Shown here in pieces: positions 33,990 to 64,000 of a stretch of 64,000 nucleotides of DNA; positions within the stretch are counted from its first letter, which is position 1, and every line of letters begins with the position of its first letter. Made by a program: the position numbers and the translations under genes. The stretch lies in assembly GCA_947034895.1 (NCBI GenBank), contig OX344764.1, forward strand, positions 310,001-374,000, in the 5' to 3' direction. The stretch is from Rhytidiadelphus loreus. Its lineage: Eukaryota; Streptophyta; Bryopsida; Hypnales; Hylocomiaceae. A model generated the notes under the pieces. The model had not been told where the DNA came from. It saw nothing but the letters and a program-made list of their open reading frames with translations, and ran no database searches.

Positions 33990-34160
33990 CCCACCAGCGT
34001 TCCCATCCAAACCTAACGCGTCTCCGCCCAACCCTAACACGTCCCTGCCTTGCCCGACAGTGTTCTCGCCCAACCCTAAACACGTCCCCACCCGACCACA
34101 ATGCGTCGCCGCCCATCCGTCTGCGCCCCTACGAGTTGCTTGTGCGCCTACTTGGTATAT
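33990..34160. promoter_or_regulatory. Diverged G/C-rich motif array and TATA box upstream of D1
   Basis: Repeated CGCCCAACCCTAA(A)CACGTC-like units and GTCGCCGCCC words, then GGTATATAAACCC at about 34154. This is the same place occupied by the GGGCGACNNCGGGT arrays upstream of the other cargo ORFs, but the motif has diverged. The start codon of D1 is about 145 bp downstream. Confidence 0.5.
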
Positions 34161-34302
34161 AAACCCATCCCCGCCGCTCACAACCCACCTCACAAGTTCC
34201 CTAGTCCTCCACTTCTTTTGAGCTAGTTGCCCGGGCATTTTTGTGAAGTCCTTTTTATCAAACACATTTTTCAGCGCTTCACTAGCAATGTTGACACCAT
34301 GA

Positions 34303-34926
34303 ATGCTTAGGAAGGAACAGAGAGACAAGACCCGTATCCGTGCGGGTTTAAAACATCGAAAACGATTGCATATTCTACGAAATTCAGCAAAGCTTGCCTT
34401 CAGGGGTTGGGAGGCAGAATCTGATCCATGGTCTATAGACACGTGTGCACAATACATAGAATGGTGCCACGTGGACAAAGCCTTTCCCGAAGAATGACAC
34501 AACTTCCATCGCCGCTTCCACAAAGCAAATTTGAAGCACTGCACCGACGAAGCATTCAAGGAACGTTGCATTGAGGTCTACCAAGAAGTGTACGATGAAA
34601 CCATAGTCAAATGCAACGAAATTCCACTTTTCATTGCACGTGGCGTCCATGCCAAATTGAAGTTGAGGAATCGAGTGGATTGGTCCACTATAAAAGAGAG
34701 AGGCGAAAAAATTCGTATACAAAATCCAGCAAACGGCTTCATCGTAATAGGGCATCGGAAATATCCGGAGGAGGGAATAAACATTCGTAGGACCAGGGTT
34801 GTCTACCCGGACAACTCGACAACTCGACAAACTCGACGTCAAAGACGTCTAGTAGAGGGTCCCGTCCGTCTAATAGAGTCAACTTTACCCTTTGACTTTT
34901 CTGGAATTTACCCCCCATTTACCTAG
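34303..34926 (+). pseudogene. D-family protein (Trp-Cys-His domain), copy D1, truncated
   Basis: Intronless frame with one TGA at 34495-34497. The homologues have Arg near this place, so CGA to TGA is likely. It starts with a basic segment (HRKRLHIL), then the family domain: F-x-GW-x3-(E/S)-PW-S-x2-TC-x2-YIEWCH, an AN/KANLK-x-C block, RCIEVY, and a K-x-VDWSTIK end. It then stops soon after an Arg-rich stretch, and lacks the acidic and coiled-coil parts of D3 and D4. I do not recognise the domain. Its conserved Trp, Cys and His suggest a folded, perhaps metal-binding module; that is inference. Confidence 0.7.
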
Positions 34927-34959
34927 GCTTACCTGGCTGCCATGTGGCAGCTGCGTGGC

Positions 34960-35300
34960 AAATGTAGGGCGACTTCGGGTAGGGGGCGACTTCGGGTGGG
35001 GGCGACTTCGGGTGGGAGGCGACTTCGGGTAGGGGGCGACTGCGGGTAGGGGTGACTGCGGGTATGGGGCGACTACAGGTCTTAGGCGAACACGGGTACT
35101 AGGTCGCGGTCGCCTCTACCCACACCCGTGGGCGCACTTGCCCTCATCCAAGACCCACACTCGCCCTTCGTCACTTGCACGCCCCCCCCAGGACCTACGG
35201 TCGCCCCTCCAGAACCTGCGGTCGCCCCCCCAGGACCGCTGGTCACCTACGTGACCCGCACGCGTCCATTTTGCATCCACACCCGGGTTCGCCTATATAT
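34960..35300. repeat. GGGCGACNNCGGGT array A1 (between D1 and D2), inverted halves
   Basis: The first half (34965-35085) reads GGGCGAC(TT/TG)CGGGT about every 17-19 bp. The second half (35140-35290) reads the reverse, ACC(C/T)(A/G)CGGTCGCCCC, and ends with GACCCGCACGCG. The first part fits a 3'-end array of D1 and the second the 5' array of D2. The sequence is far more G/C-rich than its surroundings. Confidence 0.85.
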
Positions 35301-35303
35301 GAA
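35285..35303 (+). promoter_or_regulatory. TATA box upstream of D2
   Basis: GGTTCGCCTATATATGAAG directly follows array A1 and lies about 195 bp before the D2 start codon at 35493. The position suggests that the array is the proximal promoter of D2. Confidence 0.5.
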
Positions 35304-35492
35304 GTTGCCGAATCTTCATTCTCCCATGTTCATCACTAAGGCTTCTTGGCTTGTATCCCTTTCTGGCTACATGCATAAGCATTTGGTGTTGAAAATTTAC
35401 TATTGACTACTTTCATCCAAGGTTCTTTTTCTAGTGGTTTGATTTCAACAATCCCTCTACATTTTTTAGGACCTTCATTTCAACAATCCACC

Positions 35493-37973
35493 ATGGCTAG
35501 TGGAGACAATACCACTAGAGAATTTCTTGCTGAAGCCCCTCCATCGGTTCCACGTCCACATCGTGGTTTGGGATTGCGAAAGATTCAAAAAGACAAGGAA
35601 CGGAAGCGTAGGGGTACTTGTCACCGAAAGCGATTGCATGTGTTGAATAGTGCTGACCACATTGCTTTCAAGGGGTGGAACGAGGAGCCTGAGCCATGGT
35701 CAATACAAACTTGCGAAGATTACATTGAGTGGTGCCACATCAGCAAGTTCTTTCCAACATGGCGTCATCATCATCATCGAGACACCAACAAGGCAAACTT
35801 GAAGTTCTGTGAGAATGAAATATTCGTGAACAGGTGCATTGAATTGTAGCAAGCTCTCTACAATACGGCCTCTGTAGAAAGGAATGAGGCCCCTCTTTTC
35901 CTTGCCAGAGGAGCCTATGCTGAAGTGGCATTGAAGAAAGAAGTCGATTGGAGCACGATCAAATCCAGTCCTCACGTAAAACGTCCAGAGGACGGGTGCA
36001 TACCAAAAGGAATTCTCCTTTTTCCATAGGGTGGATTGGGTCCTTTTCGAAGTGTTCTTAGGAATCAGGCCCAGGTTGAAATTGACACAGAATCACCAGA
36101 AGAGGATGACAATTCAGATGGTACGCGGGTGCTTCGGGTAGAACGAGCCATGGAACTACCTATCAGCCTCCCCCCAAATCAAAATGAAATTGTCCACGGC
36201 GTCGGAACATCACTGGGACGTAAATCGGGACAATCGTCAAGAGTGCGACGTTCCACTACACGAATTGGACCACAAAGGGCTTCTCCATCAGCTTCAAATC
36301 CACCATTGCCTGCAGAGAACCCAAGTGATGTCTTCGAATTCAGTTGCAACGATGAAGGGCCCAGTGAAACAATTGTTGGTGCACCAGCTCTTCAATCCCG
36401 AGTGGATGTAGGTCACAACACTCTGACCCTAGCAAAGGCTCGAAACCTCATACAAATCAAAGACAACAAGATTGCTTCATTGGAAAGTGACTTGAAGAAA
36501 TTGCAAGGATAGTGCCAACTGAAAGATGCTCTCATTGCACGACAATCTACCGAGCTTCAGGCCCTACGAGAAAATCAGGTTGGCGCTTTCACTTTGTCAG
36601 ATATGGATGAGGCTTTTGTTGACCATGATCCACATCATCTAGACAAAGTTGTGGGGGACTTTACCGACGATGTTCCTTGCCATCCACTGCCTTCCAAGCG
36701 TGCTAAGGTTTTGCAAAATAATCGAAGTGCGTTCCTCACTACGATTGGCGGAGACACGACCACTGACACGAACGATATTCATGGGACCCAAGATTCACTC
36801 TCATTTCCAACAGTTCAACAATCAAGGCAGAGTGACAAAGAAAGAGACCTTGAAAAGCAGAACGAAAAACTTCAACGACGGTTGGATCAATTGGTTGCCA
36901 CGTACTGCCATTGGAAGGTGGCGTGCATTCTCTCCGTGGACAGATCGCAGCAAATAGCCAAGGAATTAGATAAGGTTTCAAAGAATTTTGTTGCAGCTTT
37001 ACCTAAACGTGAGAATGGACTCACATCCTGGGCACTCTTAGATGACATGTTTCATGAAAACATGCCGATGTTGGCAGACACAAATATTATAGATTGGGCA
37101 CAACAGGGTTGGGACCATGCAAAGCAAATGTCTAGTCACATGGAGGTGAAGGACCAAAAGCTACTATGGCCACAACCTGCAGCTTTCATACTCGACCATA
37201 CAAAATGCCCCATTTGTCAAGAGCAATTTGGCCCTAAAGGTGGTTGGGCTCTCGGGTCATGTGCACATGTGTACCATCGTCAATGCCTCCTTATAGGATG
37301 CCTCATTAGACGACGTTGTGTACTTTGTTCAGCACCATTCCATGATCGCTTGTATGCCATGTTCAACTTGATGACGTACATGCCACCTTCTTGGGAACAT
37401 AGCGTTGAAACGATGACTAATACGACACTATGGGGTCGTGACCTCGTTTGGAGCTGGCGTCAAGGGCTACATGATGATGAAAAGGCACCTAGTAGCTCTC
37501 AATTGAACTAGGAAACTGACCCGGCGGAGATTGTCAAAGTGGCACCGAAGTTGATGGGAAAAGGTCCACACAATGAAGGGAGAAGGGCATTCTTCTACCA
37601 ATGCCTTGGTGGATACTTCGAGAAGAGCTCGAGAGAATTCAAATGGGATCCTCATCCGGAAGGACACCGTTGGGATAATGAAGGTAAAAAGGGACCCGAT
37701 CGCAATCAATTTGCCTCTCTTGAAGACATGACTAACATGGCTTGCATGGACTCTACGTATGGACCTTATTACCAAAGTCAAGCATTGGACTATCTTTTGG
37801 AAGCACATTCTCCACAAACCACAAGGACCCTACAAGCTCTCCAAGATTCCAACGTCCTGGAATTCATTTTGAATGCGGAAGGGCCAGCTTCACGAACTCG
37901 TGCAAAGAAGAAGATAGTCCTTCAAGAGGCACTTCAACCTTCACATGGTGAAGCAAGTTCTTCTAAGAAGTAA
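35493..37973 (+). pseudogene. D-family protein fused to a RING-H2 finger, copy D2 (four in-frame TAG)
   Basis: A single frame of about 827 codons broken only by TAG at 35847, 36027, 36510 and 37509. Order: basic N-terminus (HRKRLHVL); D domain (FKGW ... EPEPWSIQTCEDYIEWCH, about residues 60-165); a Ser/Arg-rich linker; a coiled coil (about 450-500); a RING-type finger at about 572-613 (CPIC ... SCAHVYHRQC ... CVLC, a C3H2C3 set); and a Trp/Tyr-rich C-terminus. Known: RING-H2 fingers are usually E3 ubiquitin ligases. The combination with the D domain is unfamiliar. The first TAG stands near a conserved Trp/Tyr of the family, so TGG to TAG is likely. Intronless, next to array A1. Confidence 0.75.
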
Positions 37974-39934
37974 AAACAATCCAAATGGATTTGACGTCTG
38001 AGAATTTAATGATGGACTTCATTTCTCCTTTGGTTACTTGGTTTACGTCCAAAGATATATAATGTCAAACCCCTAGTATATAGAAGCGTATTATATATGG
38101 TAGAAGCGTGTAGCTCTCAGTGTTTTTGTTTTGTTCCACATAGGCCAACTTCGAGCCTTCTATGATTGTATGCTACACATTTGTATTGCAATATTACCGA
38201 GAATATTACAGTGCCTTCATTTTTGAAACATATTCTACATTATTTTCTACTCCAAAGACTTCACTATCTTCAAACAAAATCAAATATGTGGTACAACTGA
38301 TTGTATGAAGCTTATTATCAAAGAGCTATTAAAGTTGAAGTTCATTTTGACATTGTCATTTGCATTGACATTTAAGCTTCTAAAATTAATTCAACTGTAA
38401 ACTTTAAATTTTATTACTTAGAATTCAAAATTGTATATCATTGTAAGCAATCTCATTATCTCAATTCATTTCATGGAAGATTGTAATTGTTATCATTTTA
38501 GTTCCATAAATAGAAAAAGTGAACATGATGAACCCCTTAAGTCCCATTGTCCCCTCTAGAGACAATTTGGAATTTGGGCAAGTTTCTATGGGTTGAAATT
38601 GTACCCTAATTTTTTGAATTTTTTTGTGAAAAGAGAAAATTTGATAAGCTTTGAGGGAATATAATTTTTATTTCAATTGGTGTCCGGAAGCAAAAGTTAC
38701 GCCACAAAATACATAGAACTAAACTCGGCAGGCAATACAAAAAACATTGCAAAAATTCAAAATAGATTTAATTTTGTTCATGTTTTTGCTAACATTATGT
38801 TTTTGTCTACATAAAAAGATTTGATTCATTCCATTTTCATTAGTGATGTGCAAGTTAAGAACCCTGTTCTTTTTAAGGCAATGTAAACAAATATTTCAAA
38901 AAATAACTTATAGAATTCATTTGAAAATGCAATTTTTAAATTTTCTCTAATTAGTTTATTTTAAAGGAGAAGTTTGCTTCCTACAACAATCTCACCGTTG
39001 GGACTAACGGATTATTGTGTTCCAATCCCATGTAAGAGCTATTATCAATTTAGTTTTTCTTTCAACCTTGGATCTACTTCTACTTGACAATTTTTTGAAG
39101 TATGAAAAGGAAGTTATTATTTTTTGAATTTTTTTTCCTACACTCCCAACTCAATTCTTCAACACAATAAATTTTAAATTCAAATTCCATAGTGCACATT
39201 TTTGGAAGAAATAGCAATCAAAGTCGTTTGAAAGTGTAGTCCAGTGTTGCAAAAAAATTGCTTCTTCAACTTTGAATGCTCATATCTCTAAATCTGTACA
39301 GTCAAACATCGTACAATTTTAACCACAAAATCTTAAACAAGTGAAGTTCAAGATCCTCAGCTTCAGTTCTACAAAAGTTTAGTTTTTTCTTTGGACAAAC
39401 ACAATAGAATTATAGAAATGACAGTTTTGATTTTTTCTTCACCTAAAAATGGCCTTCGGACTTTATGGGTTTAGAAAAACACTGAAAATGGAAAAAACCT
39501 ATTGGAATCATTTGAAAATTCACCAAGCCATGTAAGTAGCGATGGAAATTAGCTAGAAAAAGAAGCAATTGGTTATTTAACTGTATAGAGTTAGGTCTTT
39601 AGGGCTATGTTTTCACCCAATAAATATCAAGATAAACATTTCTAGTACAAATCCAGAATAAAATGACATAACAAAACTGATTTGAGCAACATTAGGTCTT
39701 TTGTTCTTGTACTACATTGGTTTCAAAAGTTGTGACAAAATATTTTGCGAATACACTAAGTTCAGAAATCTGCAATACACATTACAAAGTGTACAATAAT
39801 TATTAAAAAACCACGTGAACTTTGAATGCCAAAAAAATTGTAGCATATTCTTTACTAAATCACGAGAGAGCCGCAATATCCAAAATTGGGTCTTACTTAC
39901 AAATTTACAATATTGTTCACCAAAATGCAGTACA
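37974..39934. other. AT-rich 3' regions of D2 and D3
   Basis: No credible ORF. The stretch 38510-38710, and more loosely up to about 39800, is an inverted relative of the DNA downstream of D4 (51900-53045). Both share AACCCCTTAA/TTAGGGGTTAA, a CATTGTCCC-x-GAGACAA block and TTGGGCAAGTT. It therefore looks like the common 3' end of D3- and D4-type elements. Confidence 0.5.
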
Positions 39935-41432
39935 CTACTTTCTAAAAACCTCTTTTTGGTTTAGGAAGTCACTCATATTAGGAGGAGGACCCACTTTCTC
40001 GTATTCTTCACCTCTCTTTCCCATTGTATCCTTCATCCACTTCATCCATTGCGTATAATACTTGCTTTTGGCTCTCAGATCCACAAACTCGTCTTCCAAC
40101 ACTTGTACTCTAGTCTCATGGAACTTCAACAAATTCCGAAGCATTTCTAACTCCTCTGGAAGATTACCGTATGTCGAGGCCGTTGCCAAAACGTCCACCT
40201 CCTTGACATGTTTTTGGGCCGCTTTGTAATATTTCTTTTCCTCTTCAATTGGTAATTTGCACACACAGTGCTCACTGCTCATTCTCTGCTTTCCTACATC
40301 TGCGTTGCAGGGTTTCTAATTTTGATTCCCACAGTAAACAATGGTCAGCTTGCGACAATTTCCCGGTGCTCTGCTTAGTTAAATACCGGTCTCCATTCTT
40401 CTTAAAAGCAACAAAATCGTCATCTCTCTCTTTGAGTATTTGGTTGAGAGACTTCAATTGTTGCTTCAAATAAGCTTCAGTGGAAGAAGACACTTTGCGT
40501 TCTTTCAAATTCTTCAGTTCCTCACTCTGTGTACTCAACGATAAACGTGCACTCTCGATTTTGGCAATCAAGGTCTCCTCATTGTCTGATGAATCACTAT
40601 CACCTTCTAGCATCGCATGCTCCTTTGTGGAAAAGTCCTCCACTTCCATGGAGTCAACTTTTTCCAAGACTTCTTCATGGCTAGTTGAGGTAATGGGCTC
40701 TTTTCCACGATCTTTCTTCTTTTGAAGGCCCACATCCAAAGACTTCTTGGACTCAGTGACCAAAACATCTTCATCATCGCTAAAGAAGGAATATCCGTTG
40801 TACTCATGGGTGTGCTCGTCCGAGGAAGAAGTGGAAGACCAAACTACTTCTTCATCAACAACAAATGATGCTCCACGCTTAATCAGTGTCATCATCTTGC
40901 TTATATCAAGAGGATACTTTGCCCACAAGTTGGAGGCTTCCTCCCACTCTTTTTGGTCCGGACGGACCGCAATAGGCATTTCTGGGAGTGTTGTCTAATT
41001 CACTACCTTCTTCAAAACAACTTCGGCATACACCATTCGTACAAGAAAGAAACTGAAATTATCGTTTTTGTAGACCTTGGTCTCCAAATATAGAAGGGTC
41101 CATACTTCGCAGCATCTACGCATGAACCTTGTGTCCGTAGCATACGCAAGGTTAACCTTTTGGTTTTGAACATGCAAAGGGTGACGACAAAACGGAAATA
41201 AGTTGCTGATGTGGCACCAATCCACATACTTCGCAACAGTCCGGTAACTCCAAGGCTCTGGTTCATCCCTCCAACCCTTAAAAGCCTTAATCTTCGGATG
41301 AAGTAATATGGCCACGCGCTTCTTGTGCTTCTTGCCTGACCGTTTTCGACCCTTGTCCTTCATCGCCCTTTTCTCTTGTGAAGTCAATGGAGTAGGTATG
41401 GTAGAAGGAGATGGCGAGGTCGTACGCTCCAT
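39935..41432 (-). pseudogene. D-family protein, copy D3, with acidic and coiled-coil C-terminus
   Basis: ATG at 41432. Basic N-terminus (KRSGKKHKKR), D domain (FKGWRDEPEPWSYRTVAKYVDWCHIS ... LVRMVYAEVVLKKVV), then TAG at 40995-40997, where relatives have the Trp of VDWSTIK. The frame continues from 40979: an acidic Ser/Asp-rich segment (SSTSSSDE, FFSDDED), a long Glu/Lys/Leu coiled coil, then a frameshift near 40280 into the last coiled-coil piece (40282-39935). A disabled single gene of about 490 codons. The acidic STSSSD and coiled-coil layout is repeated in D4. Array A2 lies upstream. Confidence 0.72.
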
Positions 41433-41668
41433 GTTTTAACAACGTATGTATAACTAAACAATATATACTATATAAAAGTCTCGATGCCAAAATACTTACT
41501 CTAACTAAGTGAAACTAGTAATCATACGTGTGACACATTTACAAATATGGAAGTAAAAGTAGATGATCAAGGTTCAAAGATCGTAGCGGATAGGGTCAAG
41601 TTTACGAAACACCGCGGTTTAGACATGCATGGAATGAGAAGAATGAAATTCCTTCATTCCCCAATCCC

Positions 41669-41735
41669 TGCCTCACGCACATGTAGTTAGCCACTTCAAA
41701 GTGGATGACAGCCTTTGCACAGAAGCAGGGGGACT
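41669..41735 (-). promoter_or_regulatory. Conserved leader block upstream of D3
   Basis: Read on the minus strand it contains GGCTGTCATCCACTTTGAAG then TGGCTAAC, and ends in GGGATTGGGG. The same block with small changes precedes K1 (43829-43900) and K2 (62330-62402 minus), and more weakly D4. Shared leaders before unrelated proteins indicate a common element backbone. Confidence 0.6.
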
Positions 41736-41995
41736 GACGACCGCAAGTCCACCCCACCCCATTTGTACTGGGACTAGCGGTCGCGGGAGGGCGAGTGCGG
41801 ATCCTCCAATTAGGGTGAGTGCGGGTCCCCCGACCACACAAGGGCGACTGCGGGTACTCAGGCAACCACGGGTCCACAAGGCGACCGCGAGTGCAGATCC
41901 CTGGGCGACTTCAGGTGCGGGTCCCTAGGCGACCGCGGGTGCGGATCCCTGGGCGACCTCGGGTGCGGGTCCCTGGGCGACTTCGGGTGATTTTT
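41730..41995. repeat. GGGCGACNNCGGGT array A2 upstream of D3
   Basis: About eight motif copies, GGGCGAC(TT/CT/CG/TG)C(G/A)GGT, every 20-40 bp on the plus strand. On the coding (minus) strand of D3 they read ACCCGNNGTCGCCC, with CCCGCACCCG spacers. Near D3 the motif turns round (GACGACCGCAAG, GCGGTCGCGG). Confidence 0.85.
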
Positions 41996-41999
41996 CAGA

Positions 42000-43490
42000 C
42001 AAAGACAAATAAAAGAGGAATCTAACACAAGTGGTTTCATATTTTTGGAAGTATTTTATAATTACTTATAAATTTCCAAAGGACTTGTGTCATAGGTCCC
42101 TATTTATGCCCCTAGGTCTTCCGCAAAATGTTCACTTGCAACTTCTAAATATAAATGGGAAAGTAAAGATAATGGATTGGCTCTTACAATTCATAATTTT
42201 TTTTTCTCAAATCATTTAATGATTATGGAGGTCAATTTATGAACTACAGATTGTCCATTTTGAAGCCACTTAAACGGTCCATTTTTAATGCCTGCTCCAT
42301 TTCAAAGCCTTCTACCTTATCTTTACTTTCACATCCAAACAAATGGAGAGAGGAACCTTCTTTAAAATCCAATGGACATCGGATTGGGGGAAACTCCCCA
42401 AGTAAAAAAATATGTATGATAGTGTTTCCTTGAGTGTCAAATGCTTCAATGCACACCCTTGCCTGAGCAAAAGAATTTATGTATCAATGAATAGGTGGTA
42501 GTGAAATCGTGGGCCACTAGAATTAAAAATATTCCCAACCTATAATGAGTTTAATAGCTATTCAAGTGATATTAAGTTTTGGAAGAGAACATTTTAGTGT
42601 GCCAATATAATTTGTAGTTCTTCATTTCACCTTCAATCCCAATTTTCTTTTATAAGCAATACAATCAATAAAGAAAATGAAAATTTTCTTGGTTATCATC
42701 TCACAACTCTTATCCAATTTTGCACTCAAAGGAAACATGCATACTAATACACAAGCTAATTAAACATTCATACGGTTAGATTTTCGGATTATAAAACTTG
42801 CTTCAATGGCAACTACTATAAGTCCATGCTCAATTTTCATAGGAAAAATACAAGAGGGAAAGGCTTAAGGCACTTAGGACTTTATTAGTAATGCACTCTA
42901 ATTGTTAAGTTAAACTTATCTTTTGACCCTACATAGATTAAGCAAACACCCATCTTGTAAAATCAAATTTCATTCACAAGTATTTATTCGTCATTGTCCA
43001 TAATGACGAACAAATCTAATTAAATAAAGATTTAGCACAATTGAATTCTAAAATACTCTATATCATTACAAATTAGTTACTTTAAAGTTTCAAAAAATCC
43101 CGTGAAGACCTCGGTATAGGCCACGTGACGTGCTTCGAGGATTGAACCAAGGGGCACTTCGAATTTTGCACTGAAATGTTTTTCATCTCAGTGCGCAATT
43201 CAAAGTGCCCCTTGACCGAACCCGTAAGACCCAACTATAACCTCCTACATCATGCATACGGAGTTGGGAATCGAACTGCAGACCTCCCAGACTCCACTTG
43301 AGTTCGAAGAAGTTGACCCTTGTGTGAGAATCCCTTTCACTACTTCACCTTCCCGTTGGTCACATCGGGAATCACCTTTGATGCACCACTCCTTGTCCAT
43401 CCCATTTTTATTCTTTTTTTTCTTTGATTCTATGGGGCTTCAAAATACCATCAGCTGCCCAACACAAAATAGTCTTGCAGTCGCCCCACG
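42000..43490 (-). repeat. Duplicated unit U3, inverted copy of 48467-49860
   Basis: GACTTGTGTCATAGGTCCCTA at 42084 matches the inverse of TAGGGACCTATGACACAAGTC at 49715, and the similarity runs on to the CCATAGAATCAAAGAAAAAAA end (43413-43440; 48490-48515). Parts also match 46380-47960. No gene is visible. It contains the SINE-like segment at 43240-43360. Confidence 0.7.
43240..43360 (-). repeat. tRNA-derived SINE-like segment, copy 1
   Basis: On the minus strand it has a box-A-like GGTGAAGTAGTG (43338-43350) and a box-B-like AGTTCGATTCC (43267-43277), with the wide spacing of a long-variable-arm (Leu/Ser-type) tRNA. It also occurs at 47150-47240 and 48578-48668. It is embedded in a larger duplicated unit, so independent insertion is not shown. 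Confidence 0.45.
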
Positions 43491-43815: not shown

Positions 43816-43821
43816 TGCCAG

Positions 43822-43905
43822 CCTTGGTCTTGTGCTACGGCTTTCATCCACCTTGTAGTGGCTGAATGCGAGCTTGTGGGCCAAGGCGGTGATTGGAGGG
43901 TGGAC
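43822..43905 (+). promoter_or_regulatory. Conserved leader block upstream of K1
   Basis: Contains CTACGGCTTTCATCCACC, then GTAGTGGCTGAATGCGAG, and ends GGCGGTGATTGGAGGG. Its counterpart before K2 has GGTGGCTAGATGCGTGCC and ends ATTGGAGGGGG. D3 has a clear counterpart too. It lies 70-150 bp before the K1 ATG at 43973, so it is probably the 5' untranslated region. Confidence 0.6.
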
Positions 43906-50138: not shown

Positions 50139-50139
50139 C

Positions 50140-53055: not shown

Positions 53056-53059
53056 TGCA

Positions 53060-53440: not shown

Positions 53441-56400
53441 GAGGAACAACATTGGATTTTCATTGCTCTGTTGATGAACATATGGCTTGGATCTTCTCAA
53501 GAGGCTTCATGCAATGTTATATTCTTCAGAGGGAAACAACCTTGCTTTAAGTGGTTAGAAAACTACTCGAAGCGGTGGCTTTGTCATAACTTTTTTTTCC
53601 GAAACACTTGGGTACATATACGTTTCGGTTTGGAATAACGCATATCAGATAAACAATATGGCAAACCGAGGTGCGGGGAGGAGGACGAACATAAATGATA
53701 CTCGAAGAGCCACAAAGGAGTGGGATCCATGGTTGGTTATTGAAACAAACCCCGCTCGTTCTGCAAATACGAGGACTTGTATTTTTTGTGGTTGGAACAA
53801 AGTTTTCGTGCGGAAGCGAGCATTTGGTCACTTTGGTTACCCCCGTACATCAACAGTGGAACGTTGTAAACGTATTCCATCCGTAGTCCTTGAATTATTC
53901 AGGAACTGTGAAGGGATTGTACCAAAAGAAATGAATTTGGAGGAGATGCATGGAGCAGATCCTGAGGTTGATGTTGTTGCTGAGTCCATTGTAGGGTATA
54001 CTGTGGATGCATCAGTCGAAGGGTCTGGGACCCAAGCGACAGGATAGAAGCACCTAATGCACCGCCTCGTAATCCAGATTCAACGAATTCTACTTCTGTG
54101 ACGGTGAGAAGGATGCGCTCAACCTCGATTTCTCGTCAACAAAGCATGGATGAATCATTCTAGGTCAATGAAAGACAAAACTTGGACAGACTATGGGCTT
54201 CTTTCTTTTATGAGGCTAACATTGCATTCAATGTGATGCGACACCCAGCCTTTGTGAATGCTGTGAAAGCAACTTCGACATGTGGATTTCCATATTCCCC
54301 GCCATCGTACAATGCGGTGCGCACTAAACTACTTGATGTGAAGAAGGAGGTTGTTATGAAAATGGTCAGTAGTCGAATAAAGAGTTCTATTACCCAATAT
54401 GGAGCCACTATTTGTTCAGATGGATGGTCAGATACGAATCACCGTCCCTTGTTGAATATGATGCTCGTTTGCCCTGCGGGTGATGTCTTCCTGGGATCGG
54501 TTGATACCACAAGAGAGAAGAAAGACATGGCGTATACGGTGAATACAATGGCTACCTACATAGAGCAGGTGAGACTAGGAAATATTGTCCAATTGTGTAC
54601 AGACAATGCTTCTGTAATGACAGGGTCAATGCGCGAGTTGCAAGCAAGGTATCCCCACATGTATACGCAAGGATGTGCCGCACATATATTGGACTTACTT
54701 TTGGAAGACTGGGGAAAGGAAAAAAGGATCAAAGATCTAGTGGATAAGGCCAGGGCAATTGTGAAGTTTATAAAGAAGTACCACTTGACTTTGGGTCTCT
54801 TCCGTAAGTACTTGCCGAAGAAGTCATTGAGACTTTCCGCGGCCACACGCTTCGCAGTGCATTTTCTCATGATAGACCGTTTGGTAGAGTGCAAACAAGC
54901 GTTTCAATTCGTGGTGGGGGACGAGACGTATATGCCATTTGAGAATAGTTTGGTCAGCAGAACAAACGGACTCATTACAAGAGAGCGGGCCCGTAAAGCG
55001 CGAGAGGACATAGTTTCAGAAGTGTTTTGGGTGGAATGTGGTAATTTCCAGCACATGGTTCTTCCAGTGATTCTTGCTCTGCGCCAGTTCGATGGCAAAA
55101 TACCGGCGATGCCGAAAGCTTGGATAATAATGAGTAGCCTTCGTCAACACGTGTGCACTTTAAAGGAGGCTCCGTTCTTTCTTGATGAGCAGACCGCGAC
55201 GAAGTTCCTAAAACAATTTGATGCTCGTTGGAAGTTGATGCGTACAGACCTCCATTGTGCAGGGGCATTGTTGAACCCGTATTTGACAGATGTGGAAGAG
55301 CTTCATGACAACAGAGAGGCAAAGCGGGCATTGAATCGAGACATCAGAAAATTGAGCGGACCATTGAATGTGGATGAAGATGAAGCAATTGCTGAGTTGA
55401 CGGAATTTGAAGAGAAGTCGGGTTCCTTTGATCCATTACAAGAGGCTCCAGATGTTACTCGATGTAATTTGTTGCCTCATCAATGGTGGAATCGTGTGGG
55501 TGGGAACGCTCTTCCAAAAATAGCAAGGAGAGTTTTGTCTTTGACATGCTCAGCATCATCTTGTGAAAGAAATTGGAGCATGTATTCGTTTGTACACGAT
55601 AAAGTGCGTAATCGCCTAGCCACAAAGAAGGCTGAGATGTTGGTGTATATCTACACCAACAGCAAATTGGAACGTGAAAAACAAGGACACAATCCAGCAC
55701 TATTCTATGAAAAGTACCTTGTAGATGGAGATACAGATGAAGAGAATGAGGAACCATATTCTTCGGGGGACGAAGATGAAGTTAGGTTTAGAGATTTGAG
55801 AGAAGAACAGAGATGTGTAGTAGTAGAAGAACGTCTCCGTGGAAATAGGTGGGCTGGTATGGTGCCCCGTGTAGGTAGTCCTCTACGAGGACGATACCAC
55901 AACACTTTCGTGGGTGATGATGATGGACTGAGCTCTCCAGAGGCGTCACACCACCGCAGAGACGAAGCCCCTCATGTGTCGGCTTGAAATGCATTTCCGG
56001 TAATCAATGCAGACCCAACAAGGGAAAGAACTCCTAATGACAACAATGACGGTGTAGATATTCCAGTGGCAGATGAAGTGGAGCTTGTAAGGTCTCCAAT
56101 TGCCACATGTCTGCCGCCTAGTATGCCAATGAACCTCCGAAGTGGTGTACGAGTTAATGTACAAGGTGAAAGGCAAGAAGAGGTGTCGCATATTGAAGAG
56201 GTACCTGCAGTTCGTCCAAGTTTAGCACCGTCCAAGTTTAGCACCGTCCAACAACACTGCAACAGAAACTAGGTGTACGATTCAGATGCGCCATTGCAAG
56301 TGGTATTCAACGAGACCCGTACCCGTGGGTCCAATCGCCCTGCAAGTGTAGATACTGCCACAACATCGAGGATAGTACCAACTCCTCTAACAAGGTCGCC

Positions 56401-57517
56401 GACACATAATGATCTTGTCGTACGCGTAATACTGTAGTAAGCGCTCTTAACCACAACAATATGGTAAGATGACACGGAATATCGTCCCAGGGAACCCCAG
56501 AGGGTGTTCTAAATTCCTTATTTATCCGGTTAATGTGATTACATGAAACTATCACTCCCCAACCCGGATTCTATCTCTATCCGGACTCTCTACCGAATCC
56601 GGATTATCACAAACACCAGATCCGTAACTTAACACACGGTTTTCGATACCTCTGTTTTACCTTCAGAGGGTCTTTACTGACTTTTTCGGAGGGGTAAGGA
56701 CAACACCACTCCTTGTATTTCACTAACTCTAACTTCCTAATGATACGTATCCAAAGATCTTTCCGTCACAAACAAGGAACAGACTGGCTGACTCTCACAA
56801 CTTCGGATTTCTCCAGAAGCAGGTCACTCAGAATACAACCCGACTCCCCTTGCTACAACGACAAATACAAGATTTACTCGGAAACTGAGACGGGGTCCGG
56901 TACTAGCACTCCAACTTGTGTTTGCAGATTGATGGAACTTTCCGGGTGAGCGGGGGTTTTCCACAGACGGTTGCTTATCTCCGCACGGAACCCTCCCTAG
57001 CCTTCCGGACTCGCACCCACACCACCAACGCCGGACTCCGCACAACTTCCTATACACGCTAAAACCGCTTCCCTGGACAACACACAGTTCACAGACCCGG
57101 GAAACCCTGAATCCGGACTCTTTCTTACCACCTCTCTACTCTTTAGCCACAACCTTCAAGCAAGCGCCCAAACAACCTTAAAACTCCCAAAGAAAAGGAA
57201 ACCAAGAACCCACAAAGAAAACTAAGGCAATGAGTAAAAAGACAATAAAAATGCAAACATATATTTACTACTCAAAAATAAGGAATAGCAAGAAAAGGAA
57301 TCCAGGACCACAAGCGGTCCCTTCCTTTTATAAGCAAAACAACATGCCGTAAAACCCGCGGAAAGTGCCACTAAACACCATCCTAAACTGCCCTAAAAGT
57401 CCAGGCGGATAAGTTTAACTAAAACTTACCCCTGAAAAACCGGAATCCGGGTTCTGACTAAGACCCGGAACTCCTAGTCTAACTAAAAGATAACTGAAAA
57501 ACTATTAGTCTAACTAC

Positions 57518-59367
57518 CTACTTTCCCTTCCGCTGTTTCTTCGAACTACTGTCAAATCCTAACTGTCCTCGGGTGCTGTTCTTGCCTTGGGGTGTACGGA
57601 GGGACGCCCGGGTGATGATCGACGTCTTCCGGATAAGGGGACTATCAGAATCTGTCTCGTCCGTATGGACTAAAGACCATTCCGCCTCCTCCAACGACTT
57701 CAGATCCTCCTCCACTTCTGCCTCTTCCGATATCTCAATGGGATCCGGTGTAGGCATAGGCATCGGTGGAGGTGGTTCGATATCCTCGAACTGCTCCGGA
57801 TGCGTCTGCGCCGGATTCTGGACAAGGTCGATCCGAGCATCTAAACTGCTCCGGACCGGCATATCCTGTCCCAAAAATCCGGAAGAGTGCCCCCCTTGAG
57901 TGATGATGTTGATCAGTGACCCAAACTGACTTGTCCGTTTGATGGGCGAGATGGGAGGTTGTGTTGCCGGAGTTGCGATGACATCCGGAACTTCCGGAAA
58001 TCCCCCGAAGTCGAGAGGCTTGTTCGGATCCATGTCCGCCATCATGGACCGGAACTCCTTCAACGATGCCTCCATTCTGCCCAACATCTCCACCATTACC
58101 CGGACTATCTTCGTGTTGGTGAGGGCCGCGGACGTCTTCTGCATCTCATCGTAAAGTGCCGCCTTGTGATAGAGGTCCGCCGGACTGACCATCCATTTTT
58201 GGAAGGTCTGGAACGCTTGATATGCCTTCTGCGTCGCCCCTTGAGACTAGTGCAGCTCTCCTTCCGTCCAAGTCAGCTTCCCCTTGAGCGCGTCCCGTTC
58301 CGTCTTCAAGTTCCGGATTTCCGTCCTCATCTCGTTCCATTCCGACTCGGCCGGTAACGCCTTCAGCGCGTCCATCAGATTTTCCGGTTCGCACTTCACG
58401 ACTTCCACGGACCTGAGTACAATCTCCATAAGCCTGTCGTGGTAATCCTTCGCAGTCCGGATCCACTCTTCTCCGCACTCGAAGAAGCGTGGTCCTTCCA
58501 ATCCTGTTTATTCTGGGTGAGAAAGGGACCCGGGAATTTACCTCTGGCTGCCGGAATCGTAGACTTCCGTCTTTTGCTTCCCGATGCTTGCTCCCATTCC
58601 TCCTTCTCCCTCTGTGTGTGCTTCGGTTCCGGATCCGGCTTCTCTTCCTTGACTTCCGGCTTGGCTTCCTCCTCCTCCTCCTCAGACTCTTGCGTCTCTT
58701 GCTCCTCCTCATCAGAGCAGTTGCATTGGAGCATGATGAGCCTGGTCTCATAATCCGTCGCCTCGTCTTCCGTCAGCAGTTCCCAGTGTTGGTACAAGTG
58801 GAGGAGGTATGTATTGAGTAGGTTCGGCTTGTTCTTCGCCAAGTTTCCGGTGCAGCGTCCCACTACGCTCGCCACGATCCGGCCCCAGTTTACGACCCGG
58901 TCCTGAAACGCCCCAAAGATCGTGTTGGCCATGGTTACCGTAACCCAGGAACTCTTGTCCGGGTATAGAATCGGAAGCAGGAACCGGAGCAATCGCCTGT
59001 GCCTCTCGTCCCGGCAATCCTTGATCGCGTAGCCCTCCTTCGCGTGTGGTGGGTTCACGAACTTGTGTTGGTGGTACTAGTCCGTCCGGGCAGCGAATCC
59101 GCTTCCGGTTTGGGAGAACCCGTACACCTCCGCCCACAACTCCTCCGTCCACTGGTCCGGATGCCCACGTACGGTTTGGTCGTACTGGTTCGGAGCACCT
59201 GCCGCCAACTCCCGGAGGACCTGGTCACTCTGGACGTTCCAGGGTTTCTTCAGTAGACCTGCACACCCTAAGACAATCAAGTCGTCTTCTAACTGCCGCA
59301 AGTGCAGCGGATATACCGGACTAATCTTCCGGGCCGGTACTATATACCATGTACTAACCCCTACCAT
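57518..59367 (-). pseudogene. B-family element protein, copy B3
   Basis: Conserved block: LIVLGCAGLLKKPWNVQSD, PDQWTEELWAEVYGF, then TAG at 59077-59079, HRRLLRFLLPILYPDKS, ANTIFGAF, and a V-NWGRIVASVVGRC helix. An acidic Glu-rich stretch follows. A frameshift near 58450-58500 leads to coiled-coil and TAG at 58247-58249, then a Pro/Glu-rich tail ending Lys-rich at 57518. Layout and length match B2. Both in-frame stops are TAG. No polymerase or integrase motif was found. Confidence 0.7.
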
Positions 59368-59467
59368 CCGTCTCACCTCTCCTATCGCCGTAACCCTAAC
59401 TCACCACACTTTCTCTCACTATCAACCAGATCCGGAGCAACTGAAAGAGGGCGAGAAATGAGGAGGA

Positions 59468-59484
59468 GCTAGGTTTATATAGAA
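59468..59484 (-). promoter_or_regulatory. TATA box of element B3
   Basis: TTCTATATAAACC on the minus strand lies about 100 bp upstream of the B3 ATG at 59367. A GTTTATATACCC word stands in a similar G/C context in the B-like remnant near 33410. Confidence 0.45.
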
Positions 59485-60345
59485 TTCCTGCGCCCAACGT
59501 TCACTGTAACGGGAACGCAGGCTACGAAACGCCGTAATGTATCCCTAGTCTACTGCCGCAAGCTACTGAATTTAATGCCTGCGTTCCGGTTTCCTGCGTT
59601 CCGGCTCATGAATCCGTCCACCCGGATGTCAAGTTCCGTCATGCTTCCGTACTGGTTCCGGAACGAAGTCTAAACTAATTCTAAGTGTTTATTTGTTTCC
59701 GCTAGTCTATGCCTAAACTAATTTTTTTCAATTTTGATCTATTTTAATTTTTCTTAGTCTATTAAGGTCCGTACTAAGCTATTACGGATTCCGACAGATC
59801 TACAACAAATCGTTGATGAAGGAGTGCATGGCTCAGTTCCACAACCTACTCCGGCCTCGTTGATGTCAGGCCCTGGAGAATCATCCAAGCGATCGCGTGA
59901 ACACTCCAAATCAGAAAATAAACGAACCCGCAAGACGCAAGACAGATTGACACGGAACCTCAAGCGTCAAAACCATGCGATCCATCCATTTGTCATTGGA
60001 GAACGAAATTCCACTCGTAATCCTTGGCCATCAAGCGCAGCAGCGAGAGCAGAGCGTCAACATGTTGGGCAGTAGGTACTAGAGCGACCGACTGGCCCTA
60101 TTATCAATGGAACCACTGATGCATCGAGGCTAACAAAGCGATTAGTGCTAGCCGAAGTTGTTGGTGGTTTAGAAACGCAAGTGCGAAATTTGAACTCTGA
60201 GGTGGAACGTGAGGTGATCCTTCAACCTAGAAGTAGAGAAGATGATGAAAACGAGGTCTCAGGAGCTAGTGACAATAGTGGGCCACATGAAGACACCGAC
60301 CCCAATATAGATGAAGCGGAAAGCGATTCTACCTTCACAATGTAA

Positions 60346-60865
60346 TGTGTTGCATTATAGATGTGAAGGCCTTCAAATAGTACTATAAGGATTTAACATC
60401 AATGCCTTGTAGTGAAGATTTGTTGCCAAAGCTTGTAATGAAATAGGTAGATTTTGAATTTTGTGTAGTCCATCACTTGGCTTCACAAAGTCAGGAAGAT
60501 TGTAAAAGGTACTTTGGTGTTGACGATGATGATTAATGAAGGTATTCGTATTTTTTGCAAATAAGTGTGCAATTTCAAATAGGAGTGGTCTTTGTACTCA
60601 ATTGTGAAGATCATCCCTATGTATGTACGCAGTTCCATTTAAATTAATATGATTATTGCGTTTGTTTTTATAATTATTATGTTTAGACTTATGAATTGAT
60701 TGTTCCATGATATATCATTACATAATGCATATTCATTTGCTTTGGTACGTACCGAGCATATAATTCAATGCTTATATATTGCCGATTTGCCGTGGAATGT
60801 GTTGGTTGAAGAATAAATATTGGAAATAAAATGTTGTGGAGGCCCCAAACTTGTAGCCCATGAAG
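60346..60865. other. AT-rich 3' region of the hAT gene
   Basis: No ORF. Ordinary AT-rich sequence between the transposase stop and array A8. A polyadenylation-like AATAAA-type word occurs (GAATAAATAT at 60811), but I would not assign it firmly. Confidence 0.45.
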
Positions 60866-61125
60866 TAGGACCCGCGGTTGCCCTGGATTTCGGACCCGCA
60901 GTCGCCCTAGATTTCGGACCCACGGTCGCCCTAGATTCGGACCCACAGTCGCCCAGGATTTTGGACCCGAGGTCGCCCTACCCGTGGTCGCCCCCTACCC
61001 GTGGTCGCCCCCTACCCGTGGTCGCCCCCCTACCCGCGGTCGCCCCCTACCCGTGGTCCCCCCTACCCGCGATCGCCCCTACCCGTGGTCGCCCCTACCC
61101 GCGGTCGCCCCTCAAGAAGCACGCC
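60866..61125. repeat. GGGCGACNNCGGGT array A8 (between hAT and K2)
   Basis: About twelve copies of ACCCG(C/T)GGTCGCCC on the plus strand. Spacing is 22-24 bp at the left, then 17-20 bp where they run almost head to tail (60965-61110). It could be the 3' array of K2, read on the minus strand as GGGCGACCGCGGGT, as after D1. Confidence 0.85.
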
Positions 61126-61216
61126 ACGTCATAGCCACGTAGGACAGTCCGTTTTACCAAGGGGTAAATAAATTTGAAATCCAAAATCCGTACACGATAA
61201 CAAAAAACGCCCTTAC

Positions 61217-62260
61217 TCAACAACTCGACAATTCGACATGTGACATGCGACGTCTATTAGACACAAAAACTCGAAATTCTATCAGACAAGACAATCCTGT
61301 TTCATGCCAGTCAATGGTTGGTGATACAGAACGATCTAAATGCCTCAACTCATTCAAATGGCCCCCATTCCACCACAAAGTGTACGCTTCATTCGTGCGA
61401 GAATGAATGGCAAAAAACTTAATGATGCCAGGGTGGTTCAAGGGGCATGCAAGGGCCTCCATGGACCGTTGCGCTCTCCCTTCGCACGGGTTTATTGCCT
61501 TGGATACTTTCCCAACAAAAGCGATGTAGCTTGGAATTGTATCCATTCCTTCAATGCGTACCTTACGCACTTTTGCATACCCCCCTTCACGTTCAAAAGC
61601 ACTAAGGGGCACCACTTTCGCCGTATCGGGGATCCACGTGATACACAATCCACCATCTCGTGCAAATGCTGCCTGCACCGCTGCATTTTTCCACTTAAAA
61701 CCCCTTGCCGAGCTTCTTGCCAATTTCTTCACTGCGTTGGACCTCCACTCCATTTTTTGGCGGAATGCCTTGATGTCTTCTGATTCCTCTACTATTGGAA
61801 GTAACGGTCGATGTTCCTCCATCAATTTCTTGGTATTGAACATCACCGCTTTCAATGTGTTATCAAGCCATTCAAATAGTCTCGAAGAATATGTCAAGTC
61901 AATGTCTGCGAAATCATCGGATCCCTTTAGCTTGGTTAAAATCCGTGCCTATAAATCGTTTGGCAAGGCCATACTACCAGTTGTAGGACACCTCAAATAG
62001 CTTGCCTCCAAGAATTGTACACTTTTCCGTATGTACCACTGGAGACACGCTTCGTATGCATATCGGGTATAACTCGAGGGAGGATAGTTGGAGTCCTTGT
62101 CATGTGCTGACTTCTGCTTCTTGCCCTTCCGTCGCTCTTGACTCCCTCCTTCTTCGTTTTCATTTACAGCTATCGGAACCTTGAAAAAAATTGGATCATC
62201 GAGGTCCAGATCCCATAAAGACTTTCTCCTTGTAGTATTGCCTTCATGTGGAAAAGCCAT
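61217..62260 (-). pseudogene. Kinase-like protein K2, truncated copy with in-frame TAG
   Basis: ATG at 62258-62260. The N-terminus AHDKDSNYPPSSYTRYAYEACLQWY is homologous to K1. TAG at 61949-61951, then the frame continues: MFNTKKLMEEHRPLLP, the GGYAKV loop (Gly to Ala at the third Gly), FVGK, a NHPGIIKFFAIH block, and LWWNGGHLNEL hinge. Homology to K1 stops at DWHETG (about 61310), just before the catalytic loop. The remaining 30 codons are unrelated and run into sequence with CAACTCGAC repeats. It therefore lacks all catalytic motifs. Confidence 0.75.
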
Positions 62261-62402: not shown

Positions 62403-62437
62403 GTAAGGTGAGAATCGGAATTGGGGCTAACGCTTAA

Positions 62438-62660
62438 GTACCCGAAGTCGCCTCTAGACGCGTGCGTTTGGGTGATTGCGGGTCAGGAGGGGGTGACTGC
62501 GGGTCAGAAGAGGGGCGACTGCGAGTCTGAAGAGAGGCGACTACGGGTCTGAAGACAGCGGAAATGGGCGACTGCGCGTTTTTGGAGCGCGGAAATGGGC
62601 GACTGCGCATCAAGGGCGACTGTAGATCGTGGGCGACCGCGGGTACCAACTAAACCACCC
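62438..62660. repeat. GGGCGACNNCGGGT array A9 upstream of K2
   Basis: On the K2 coding (minus) strand: several ACCCG(C/T)AGTC(G/A)CCC copies, then ACGCACGCG and a final inverted GGCGACTTCGGGTACTTAAGCG at 62440-62460. The ending is the same as A3 before K1. Confidence 0.85.
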
Positions 62661-62694
62661 CGAAACTTGCACACGCGGTCACCCACAAAGAAGT

Positions 62695-62960
62695 CTCCTT
62701 GACCCGCAGTTGCCCCCTACGCGCAGTCGCCCCATTGGAGATTGAGTTTGCATTTTCCAAAACATTAGTCTCCCTCCTTGACCCGCAGTCGTCCCCTACG
62801 CGCAGTCGCCCTACTAGAGATTGAGTTTGCTTTTTCCAAAAAATTAGTCTCCCTCCTTGACCCGTAGTCGCCCCCTACGCACAGTCGCCCTGATTCAAAT
62901 GTGTTTCTCGCTTTGTCGATGACCTGCGGTCGCCCCTGACCCAAGGTCGCCCTAAACCAA
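62695..62960. repeat. Array A10 with alternating GACCCGCAGTCGCCC / CTACGCGCAGTCGCC
   Basis: Pairs of motifs, CTTGACCCGCAGT(C/T)GCCCC followed by CTACGCGCAGTCGCCC, are repeated with about 60-80 bp of GAGATTGAGTTTGC(A/T)TTTTCC sequence between them. A higher-order repeat of the basic motif. Confidence 0.8.
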
Positions 62961-63235
62961 CAACCATCCTGACCCAACACTAATTAGCATCTGCAGCATA
63001 TTCTAATTGATTTTTCCTTATCTCACATACTAAATTGGTAATAAATGTTAGGCGTTAGTTCATATCAAAGACATGGCAAGGCAATGGAAGAATTATTCTC
63101 ACAATGTGAAGGGGTTCCCAAACCCTAGACCCTAGACTTTGGAAAACAATAATAAAACTTTTATCTAGAATCAAATCCTTAAACCTACATAAAATACTTA
63201 CACATCCTACACGAGATGTAGTGTTTTAGACCTAA
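62961..63235. other. Short AT-rich spacer
   Basis: I see no gene, motif array or tandem repeat in this stretch. Confidence 0.5.
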
Positions 63236-63590
63236 AATAGAATCATGTCTTTTTTGTCTTGTTGAATTTGTAAAGAAAATGGAGGAAGTAACATATGATT
63301 AAAGGGAATTAGAAACAATAAAGGAGAGGTCCCAAAAAAAACACCATCTCGTGAAACATGCCCAAATAAATCTAATTACACCTCCCTACTATTAGAATGT
63401 ACATAAAACTTTCATTTGGAACTTCTTGCCAAAGGAGTGTTGGAGAGCTAATGCAAAACCTAGGATTTGTTTGTCTTGTTGAATTTGTAAAGAAAATGGA
63501 GGAAGTAACATATGATTAAAGGGAATTAGAAACAATAAGGGAGAGGGATCCCAAAAAAAAAGAAATCTCGTGAAACATGCCCATACCCGC
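63236..63590. repeat. Direct duplication of about 115 bp
   Basis: TTGTTGAATTTGTAAAGAAAATGG ... CTCGTGAAACATGCCC occurs at about 63260-63363 and again at about 63477-63583, with few differences. No coding potential. Confidence 0.8.
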
Positions 63591-64000
63591 AGTCGCCCAA
63601 AGCATAGTCGCCCTAGAACCCCAGGTCTAATTTTGGAAGTGATCTGGGGACCCGCAGTCGCCCCCTACGCACAGTCGCCCTAATGGAAGGGGGGAGATTG
63701 CATTTTCAAAATTTTTGGTGTCTCCCACCTTGACCCACAGTCGCCCCCTACGTGCAGTCGCCCTGATTGAGGGCAGAAAATTATTTGGTGTCTCCCTCCC
63801 CCTCCATATGGGCGACTGTGCGTAGGGGGCGACTGTGGGTCAAGGAGTTTGCATTTTCTCCTTGACCCGTAGTCGCCCTCTACGCGCAGTCGCCCTCATT
63901 GAGGGCGGAAAATTATTTGGTGTCTCCCTCCCCCTCCATATAGGCAACTACGCGTAGGGGGCGACTGCGGGTCAAGGAGTTTGCATTTTCTCCTTGACCC
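63580..64000. repeat. Array A11, inverted GACCCGCAGTCGCCC / GGGCGACTGCGGGTC units, runs off the window
   Basis: The same composite unit as A10. From 63780 on, the motif occurs in both directions: GGGCGACTGTGCGTAGGGGGCGACTG (63808-63833) faces CCTTGACCCGTAGTCGCCC (63860-63885), and a second such pair follows. These can form strong hairpins of about 35 bp arms. The window ends inside the array. Confidence 0.8.

What the first reader, a model, noticed from the sequence alone, without database searches (positions are those of the whole stretch)
33990..64000. A family of array-flanked intronless elements carrying unrelated cargo genes
Across 30 kb, seven ORFs of three unrelated kinds (Trp-Cys-His-domain proteins D1-D4, kinase-like K1 and K2, hAT transposase) stand 0.1-0.5 kb downstream of a G/C-rich array, made of GGGCGACNNCGGGT in all but D1, whose array has diverged. 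They are intronless, unlike the host gene at the left. I know of no plant element described with this combination. Inference: one mobile backbone that has captured or exchanged genes, or a set of sister transposons sharing a promoter.
Basis: partly seen in the sequence, partly recalled or inferred. Interest (0 to 1): 0.88.

Follow-up and report, generated by a model that had tools for sequence, protein, structure and literature searches.

The report
Giant five-gene hAT jumping gene
What looked like seven separate mobile genes in a moss-like plant genome is mainly one 26,000-base jumping element that carries five genes, including a protein kinase, and moves as a single unit, far larger than ordinary elements of its type.

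Summary
The arrays and ORFs are real, but they are not separate elements with captured cargo. Window 34794-61299 is one 26.5-kb transposon with hAT-type ends (CAGGGTTGT), inverted terminal arrays and five genes in fixed order: D2(+), D3(-), kinase K1(+), D4(+), hAT transposase(+). D1 and K2 lie outside it, as pieces of other copies. In the same 407-Mb genome I read eight two-ended elements: six carry the five genes in this order, two are internal-deletion derivatives. Five of eight have perfect 8-bp target duplications; the window copy and two others have none. An exact 19-base 3' tip occurs 604 times (reversed control 0), the exact array core 26,743 times (control 389). Of the first 100 listed cores on contig C1, 97 lie inside these elements. 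Two families share all five proteins at 40-70% identity with dN/dS 0.12-0.33, so the extra genes look like maintained parts of the element. The kinase segment is inverted between families. In one complete copy (E3) all five genes have an array plus a GGCTNNATGCG-like promoter motif; in the window five of seven ORFs do. It is a hAT by TIR, TSD and transposase; I found no such multi-gene hAT in the papers searchable here. All window copies are decayed.

The parts
34794..61299 (+). E1: giant hAT element, 26,506 bp, family A
   Evidence: TIR tips at both ends; main blocks 90-96% identical to E2 and E6; no TSD
34794..34804 (+). 5' TIR tip CAGGGTTGTCT
   Evidence: fits [T/C]AGNGNNG of PMC6027215
34967..35097 (+). 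5' terminal array, 8 sites in + orientation
35124..35294 (-). D2 promoter array, 6 sites in - orientation
35365..35375 (+). core promoter motif GGCTACATGCA of D2
35493..37973 (+). D2 gene: WCH domain, then a weak RING match; broken by in-frame stops
   Evidence: ORFs of 740 and 768 aa in E2 and E3
38531..38900 (-). 3' region of D3, alike to 52662-53042 behind D4
39938..41432 (-). D3 gene: WCH plus predicted coiled coil, about 490-500 aa; broken by a stop and a frameshift
   Evidence: one 498-aa ORF in E2
41789..41988 (+). D3 promoter array (9 sites)
41990..43684 (.). left copy of the long inverted repeat beside K (family A)
43473..43820 (.). K1 promoter array (14 sites at 3 mismatches or fewer)
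43860..43870 (+). core promoter motif GGCTGAATGCG of K1
43973..45613 (+). K1 protein kinase gene; in-frame stop 15 codons after the ATG; catalytic HND changed to HNN
46834..47014 (+). array in first right copy of the repeat
48230..48425 (+). array in second right copy of the repeat
48255..49825 (.). right copy of the long inverted repeat (85-91% identity to the left)
50150..50259 (.). D4 promoter array (5 sites at 3 mismatches or fewer)
50337..50347 (+). core promoter motif GTCTGGATGCG of D4
50457..51880 (+). D4 gene, decayed; one ORF of 552-556 aa in E3, E4, E5 and E6
53059..53363 (.). hAT promoter array (12 sites -, 1 site +)
53503..53513 (+). core promoter motif GGCTTCATGCA of hAT
53658..60345 (+). 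hAT transposase gene (DUF659, Dimer_Tnp_hAT, long C-terminal extension), broken and interrupted
56416..59796 (-). later insertion of about 3.4 kb in the hAT gene, with ORFs I read as gag-like; no LTR pair found
60870..61110 (-). 3' terminal array, 13 sites in - orientation (inverted to the 5' array)
61289..61299 (-). 3' TIR tip CAGGATTGTCT (one base off the pattern)
34303..34698 (+). D1: truncated D2-type gene of another copy (probably a third family), outside E1
61300..62260 (-). K2: truncated kinase of E7, a family B copy ending at C4:384770, outside E1
62440..62952 (.). K2 promoter array (belongs to E7)

Best explanation
The feature is a giant autonomous-type hAT transposon with five genes. 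Shown: it has hAT TIR tips, 8-bp target duplications in five of eight two-ended copies, its own hAT transposase gene, inverted terminal arrays, and four further genes in fixed order. Those four are three WCH-domain proteins (one with a weak RING match) and a protein kinase. Also shown: arrays stand before the genes, often with a common core promoter motif, and all five proteins were conserved between two deeply diverged families. Inferred: the transposase recognises the TIR and the GGGCGACNNCGGGT sites at both ends and moves the whole 22-26 kb unit by cut and paste. The same sites double as promoter control. The D proteins are the best candidates for array-binding or regulatory proteins. The kinase and RING protein adjust transposition or host silencing. 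Deletion derivatives such as E5 and E8 were moved in trans.
For: 8 two-ended elements; 5 of 8 with perfect 8-bp TSD. Six of 8 carry all five genes in one order. E3 and E4 are 98.75% identical over 22.4 kb at two loci with different TSDs. Family A-B dN/dS by gene: D2 0.17-0.20, D3 0.26-0.30, K 0.14-0.19 (one pair with infinite dS left out), D4 0.16-0.33, hAT 0.12-0.19. 604 exact 3' tips against 0 in the reversed control. 97 of 100 listed array cores on C1 lie inside these elements. The core promoter motif lies below an array at five of five genes of E3 and five of seven ORFs in the window. 14 of 16 element ends fit the TIR pattern [T/C]AGNGNNG.
Against: 3 of 8 two-ended elements (E1, E6, E9) have no TSD, including the window copy. 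dS between families is 1.2-2.9, near saturation, so dN/dS is rough, and broken genes were included. The core promoter motif is patchy in family A: 3 of 7 matches in E2 and 4 of 5 in E6 lie below an array, and D3 of E1, E2 and E6 has none at one mismatch; its total count in the window (7) does not exceed chance (5.5), only its placement does. No Pfam BED finger was found in the transposase. Binding to the arrays, expression and actual transposition are untested. The role of K and D is unknown; the D fold predictions were poor (pTM 0.27 and 0.43; no PDB match at E 0.001). Each of the six five-gene copies has at least one gene in pieces.
Confidence: 0.9

Rival explanations
1. A set of separate sister transposons, or one backbone that captures and exchanges host genes.
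For: Shared arrays and promoters with different genes; E5 carries only D4 and hAT, E8 no gene; long inverted repeats flank K1 alone.
Against: Fixed gene order in 6 of 8 two-ended elements; TIR and TSD found only at the outer tips; strong constraint on all five genes between families; E5 and E8 are essentially deletions of an E3-like element.
Confidence: 0.05
2. Remains of an endogenous DNA virus that uses a hAT transposase (Teratorn-like).
For: Several genes with a common promoter, kinase and RING-like proteins.
Against: None of the five genes resembles a capsid, polymerase or packaging gene in Pfam; no relative of K, D or hAT confirmed by tblastn in viral contigs; no match of K relative P0004 in phages; the 22-kb copies held no further gene that I recognised.
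Confidence: 0.03
3. The arrays are only an old tandem satellite or CpG-rich promoter type of host genes, and the clusters arose by segmental duplication.
For: Arrays are CpG-rich and lie upstream of genes.
Against: 97 of 100 listed sites are inside TIR-bounded elements; 5 of 8 have perfect TSDs; spacing varies from 14 to 85 bp and orientation flips, while the 14-base core is kept.
Confidence: 0.01

Closest known systems
hAT superfamily, Ac/Ds of maize (PMC3260210, abstract and passages)
   Same: Short TIRs, 8-bp TSD, repeated short motif near both ends that the transposase binds in Ac, deletion derivatives.
   Different: Ac is 4.6 kb with one gene; this is 22-26 kb with five genes, and its motif is a 14-base G+C-rich site in arrays that also stand before internal genes.
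Plant hAT consensus set, longest Gulliver 7,144 bp (PMC6027215, passages)
   Same: 14 of 16 element ends fit its TIR pattern [T/C]AGNGNNG.
   Different: About three times longer than the longest in that set; that paper found no hAT in the moss Physcomitrella.
Pack-TYPE elements including Pack-hAT (PMC8903248, start of abstract and passages)
   Same: DNA transposon carrying coding sequence.
   Different: Pack-TYPEs are non-autonomous and capture host coding DNA; here a conserved gene set stands with its own transposase gene.
Teratorn (PMC10175614, search listing only; herpesvirus part recalled)
   Same: Many genes on an element with a cut-and-paste transposase.
   Different: Teratorn is 180 kb and joined to a virus; no viral core gene was recognised here.
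BORG elements of the moss Ceratodon (recalled from Carey et al. 2021; paper not held)
   Same: From memory: abundant cut-and-paste DNA elements in a moss.
   Different: From memory they were called a new superfamily; not compared, so identity with this element cannot be excluded.

Membership tests
hAT superfamily | 8-bp target site duplication | tested here: met
   5 of 8 two-ended elements match 8 of 8 bases; E1, E6, E9 do not
hAT superfamily | TIR of the type [T/C]AGNGNNG | tested here: met
   14 of 16 ends of the eight two-ended elements; the 3' ends of E1 and E4 (CAGGATTG) miss by one base
hAT superfamily | hAT transposase with C-terminal dimerisation region | tested here: met
   PF04937 and PF05699 above cut-off in the window copy and E2; in E6 only PF04937 was found
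hAT superfamily | N-terminal BED-type zinc finger | tested here: inconclusive
   CxxC...H-like stretch seen by eye; no Pfam BED hit at E 0.01
hAT superfamily | catalytic acidic triad of the transposase | not tested
   no alignment to solved hAT transposases was made
hAT superfamily | repeated subterminal motif bound by transposase | not testable with these tools
   arrays present near both ends; binding needs an experiment
Pack-TYPE elements | non-autonomous, with captured host gene fragments | tested here: not met
   a hAT gene (whole or broken) is present in 7 of 8 two-ended elements, all but E8; the gene set is conserved. Whether the genes once came from the host was not tested
BORG elements (Ceratodon) | sequence similarity to published BORGs | not testable with these tools
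   paper not held; no BORG sequence at hand

The most novel reading that the evidence does not exclude
A new class of giant multi-gene cut-and-paste transposon in which a hAT transposase, three paralogous WCH-domain proteins (at least one binding the arrays) and a protein kinase form one co-regulated transposition programme. The kinase cassette is an invertible module that has switched orientation between families.
Probability: 0.4. Interest if true: 0.88.

Novelty: new variant of a known kind. Interest (0 to 1): 0.76.

Why it matters
Plant hAT elements are thought of as small, one-gene parasites. A 22-26 kb hAT with five genes kept under constraint, in a genome holding 604 exact copies of its 3' tip, suggests that this superfamily can carry a regulatory gene set of its own. 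It raises testable questions: what a transposon does with a kinase, and whether one 14-base site serves both as transposition signal and promoter.

Tried and rejected
Separate array-flanked single-gene elements: I first assigned a 5' and 3' array to each gene and looked for TIRs at the K1 inverted repeats (41990, 49825). I saw no TSD there, and the repeats lie inside E1.

Search for the missing outer half of the K1 repeat beyond D3: none.

3'-region comparisons between genes: D3-D4 clearly alike. D3-K1 looked alike at first, but 3 of 200 shuffles reached its score on repeat, so I do not use it.

Promoter comparisons: K1-K2 and K1-D3 beat 200 of 200 shuffles, D3-K2 did not (24 of 200 reached it).

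Relatives in viral contigs and phages: none. The array pattern in prokaryote genomes gave 31 stretches, mostly in G+C-rich bacteria by their names; I take them as chance.

D fold: low confidence, no PDB match at E 0.001, no credible Pfam hit for D3; the function of D stays open. A recombinase-like domain crossed my mind from the look of the sequence; nothing supports it.

Ongoing inversion of the kinase: not supported, because orientation follows family in 7 of 7 copies read.

Papers: ten searches listed no multi-gene giant hAT. I saw the listings, and passages of PMC8989524, PMC8504770, PMC6027215, PMC3260210 and PMC8903248. The library lacks most subscription papers, so this is weak evidence of novelty.
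Full report
1. The observation. The motif GGGCGACNNCGGGT with up to two mismatches occurs 101 times in the window against 1.2 expected, the first at 34967. Allowing three mismatches, 115 sites fall in clusters beyond 34 kb; spacing runs from 14 to 85 bp and orientation changes within some arrays, while the core is kept. Of the 49 mismatches at the four CpG positions, 43 are C-to-T or G-to-A, against 35 transitions among 82 mismatches elsewhere. This fits decay of methylated CpG and hence silenced DNA (inference). The ORFs are as described: K1 is a protein kinase by Pfam (E 7.6e-12) and the hAT ORF has DUF659 and the hAT dimerisation region. D1-D4 are one family by profile; D3 and its relatives have no credible Pfam name, and D2 has a RING match below Pfam's cut-off.

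2. Relatives of the proteins. K1 has 51 relatives at E 0.001 in the protein database, D3 has 11, and the hAT search gave 200 with capped candidates, 120 of them listed. The best listed hAT relative with a plant name is from the moss Ceratodon purpureus (41% identity). With the long contigs this suggests a moss or moss-like plant (inference). The five longest D relatives are single ORFs of 487-499 aa.

3. What the genome shows. The window lies in a 407-Mb assembly at C4:310001-374000. There the exact motif occurs 26,743 times against 389 for the reversed control. I fetched the places around the listed hits on C1, plus both sides of the window, and one more element chosen from the tip list; so all but that one were picked through the array motif. 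The same gene order appeared again and again: D2(+), D3(-), K, D4(+), hAT(+). Of the five 10-kb stretches fetched beside the window, L055 and L056 hold the rest of E7, and L057-L059 showed no array and none of these genes.

4. Ends. Aligning the outer sides of ten terminal arrays gave a sharp common tip, CAGGGTTGT, about 150-190 bp outside the arrays. Eight elements have both ends: E1 (window, 26,506 bp), E2 (C1:98984-143468), E3 (C1:353575-376107), E4 (C1:400951-423360), E5 (C1:502647-513571), E6 (C1:1428174-1453492), E8 (C1:972142-977624) and E9 (C1:29326233-29348780). Perfect 8-bp target duplications flank five of the eight: GGTGTACC (E2), TTGAGGAG (E3), GAGGTGCC (E4), GTCCAACC (E5), GTTCAAAG (E8). 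E1, E6 and E9 have none, with 2, 2 and 3 matching bases of 8; the E6 end in that script was two bases short, and with the right end its flanks ACTGCACC and GCCATATG still do not match. The exact 19-base 3' tip occurs 604 times in the genome and its reversal never. The five exact tips expected from the elements read up to 1.45 Mb of C1 (E2, E3, E5, E6, E8) are the first five in that list; the 3' tip of E4 differs by substitutions and is not.

5. One element, not seven. Six of the eight two-ended elements (E1, E2, E3, E4, E6, E9) carry all five genes in the same order. E5 (10.9 kb) is essentially E3 with bases 584-12091 deleted. E8 (5.5 kb) keeps both ends and pieces from about 10.6-14.6 kb of E3 but no gene. 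E3 and E4 are 98.75% identical over 22.4 kb yet sit at different loci with different TSDs, so the whole unit moved. In the window, D1 lies outside the 5' tip and K2 outside the 3' tip. K2 belongs to a truncated family B copy (E7) that ends at C4:384770 and is 94-96% identical to E3 in its two longest blocks. D1 is 53-58% identical to D2 of family A and 51-63% to D2 of family B over pieces of 16-67 aa, so it probably comes from a third family. E1 therefore sits between remains of other copies, which fits its lack of a TSD.

6. Two families, five conserved proteins. Family A (E1, E2, E6) and family B (E3, E4, E5, E7, E8, E9) share all five proteins at 40-70% identity (E8 has no gene, and E8 and E9 were not in this calculation). 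Pairwise dN/dS between families is 0.17-0.20 (D2), 0.26-0.30 (D3), 0.14-0.19 (K, with the one pair of infinite dS left out), 0.16-0.33 (D4) and 0.12-0.19 (hAT); dS is 1.2-2.9, so the values are rough. Within families the ratio scatters from 0.06 to 0.97 on few changes, as expected for copies decaying after insertion. The kinase keeps HND and APE motifs in E2, E3, E4 and E6, while the window copy has HNN and APK. So the extra genes look as if kept for the element's own sake over a long time (inference).

7. Promoters. Between array and ATG a de novo search found GGCTNNATGC, scoring above 12 shuffled controls at each setting tried. GGCTNNATGCG with at most one mismatch occurs seven times in the whole window, no more than the 5.5 expected by chance; but five of the seven lie between an array and the ATG of D2, K1, D4, hAT and K2. 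In E3, six of six matches lie below an array: one at each of the five genes, and one at element position 12324 that has no convincing ORF after it. In E4 it is six of seven and in E5 three of four. Family A is patchier: three of seven in E2 (K, D4, hAT) and four of five in E6 (D2, K, D4, hAT). K1 shares a longer stretch there with K2 and with D3 (0 of 200 shuffles each), while D3 and K2 compared directly do not stand out (24 of 200).

8. The kinase segment. In family A, K points the same way as hAT (E1, E2, E6); in family B it points the other way (E3, E4, E9 and the truncated E7): 3 of 3 and 4 of 4. Long inverted repeats flank K in family A (85-91% identity in the window; more copies in E2) but not in E3 or E4, where only stretches of about 200-270 bp match. 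An inversion between such repeats explains the difference (inference); there is no sign that it is still switching.

9. How common. Of the first 100 listed + strand motif hits on C1, 97 lie inside E2, E3, E4, E5, E6 or E8; the other three are in an array at 228.7 kb without a recognised tip. These six elements cover 109,963 of the first 1,432,300 bases of C1, nested insertions included. That stretch has about twice the genome's density of the motif (100 + strand hits in 1.43 Mb against 13,269 in 407 Mb), so this is no genome estimate. I did not get genome counts for the proteins or the 5' tips.

10. Mechanism. Shown: TIR, TSD, transposase gene, inverted terminal arrays, five-gene order, constraint, a promoter motif shared by many of the genes, deletion derivatives with their own TSDs. 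Inferred: arrays bind the transposase, as the AAACGG hexamers do in Ac (PMC3260210, abstract and passages); the internal arrays put the genes under the same control; D proteins are regulators or array binders; kinase and RING act on transposition or host defence. Which of these the D proteins do cannot be told from fold prediction here.

11. Place among known elements. By TIR, TSD and transposase this is a hAT. The longest plant hAT consensus in one survey of 276 sequences was 7,144 bp (PMC6027215, passages). My ten paper searches listed no multi-gene giant hAT; the library is incomplete, and the Ceratodon paper on BORG elements, which I recall, was not held.

Noticed in passing
E3 element position 12324 (C1 about 363784): A sixth array plus GGCTGAATGTG followed by about 3 kb of A+T-rich DNA without a convincing ORF; much of the region is kept in both deletion derivatives E5 and E8, so it may make a non-coding RNA or act in cis.
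   Followed up: partly
window 47152-47248 and around 48652: tRNA-Ser-like sequence (ARAGORN) and a Pol III B box (GGTTCGANTCC) in the long repeats beside K; exact B boxes in E1, E2 and E6 but none in E3, E4, E5, E7 or E8.
   Followed up: partly
window 56416-59796: 3.4-kb insertion in the hAT gene with ORFs that look to me like those at 25.2-29.1 kb; I read them as gag-like but no LTR pair was found.
   Followed up: partly
L044 (C1:224001-234000), arrays at 228659-228834 and 233764-233989: Two inverted arrays 5 kb apart without recognised tips or D, K or hAT genes; ORFs between them look like the gag-like ones of the window.
   Followed up: partly
window 12146-12970: A 43-bp minisatellite with about 19 copies.
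   Followed up: no
window 1-7000: By my reading of the ORFs, RNA-binding-protein-like host gene pieces; no array at two mismatches before 34967.
   Followed up: no
P0034 and P0069: Database entries named as Bacilli bacterium MAG are relatives of this kinase (30%) and transposase (62% identity), which suggests plant DNA in those bacterial assemblies.
   Followed up: no
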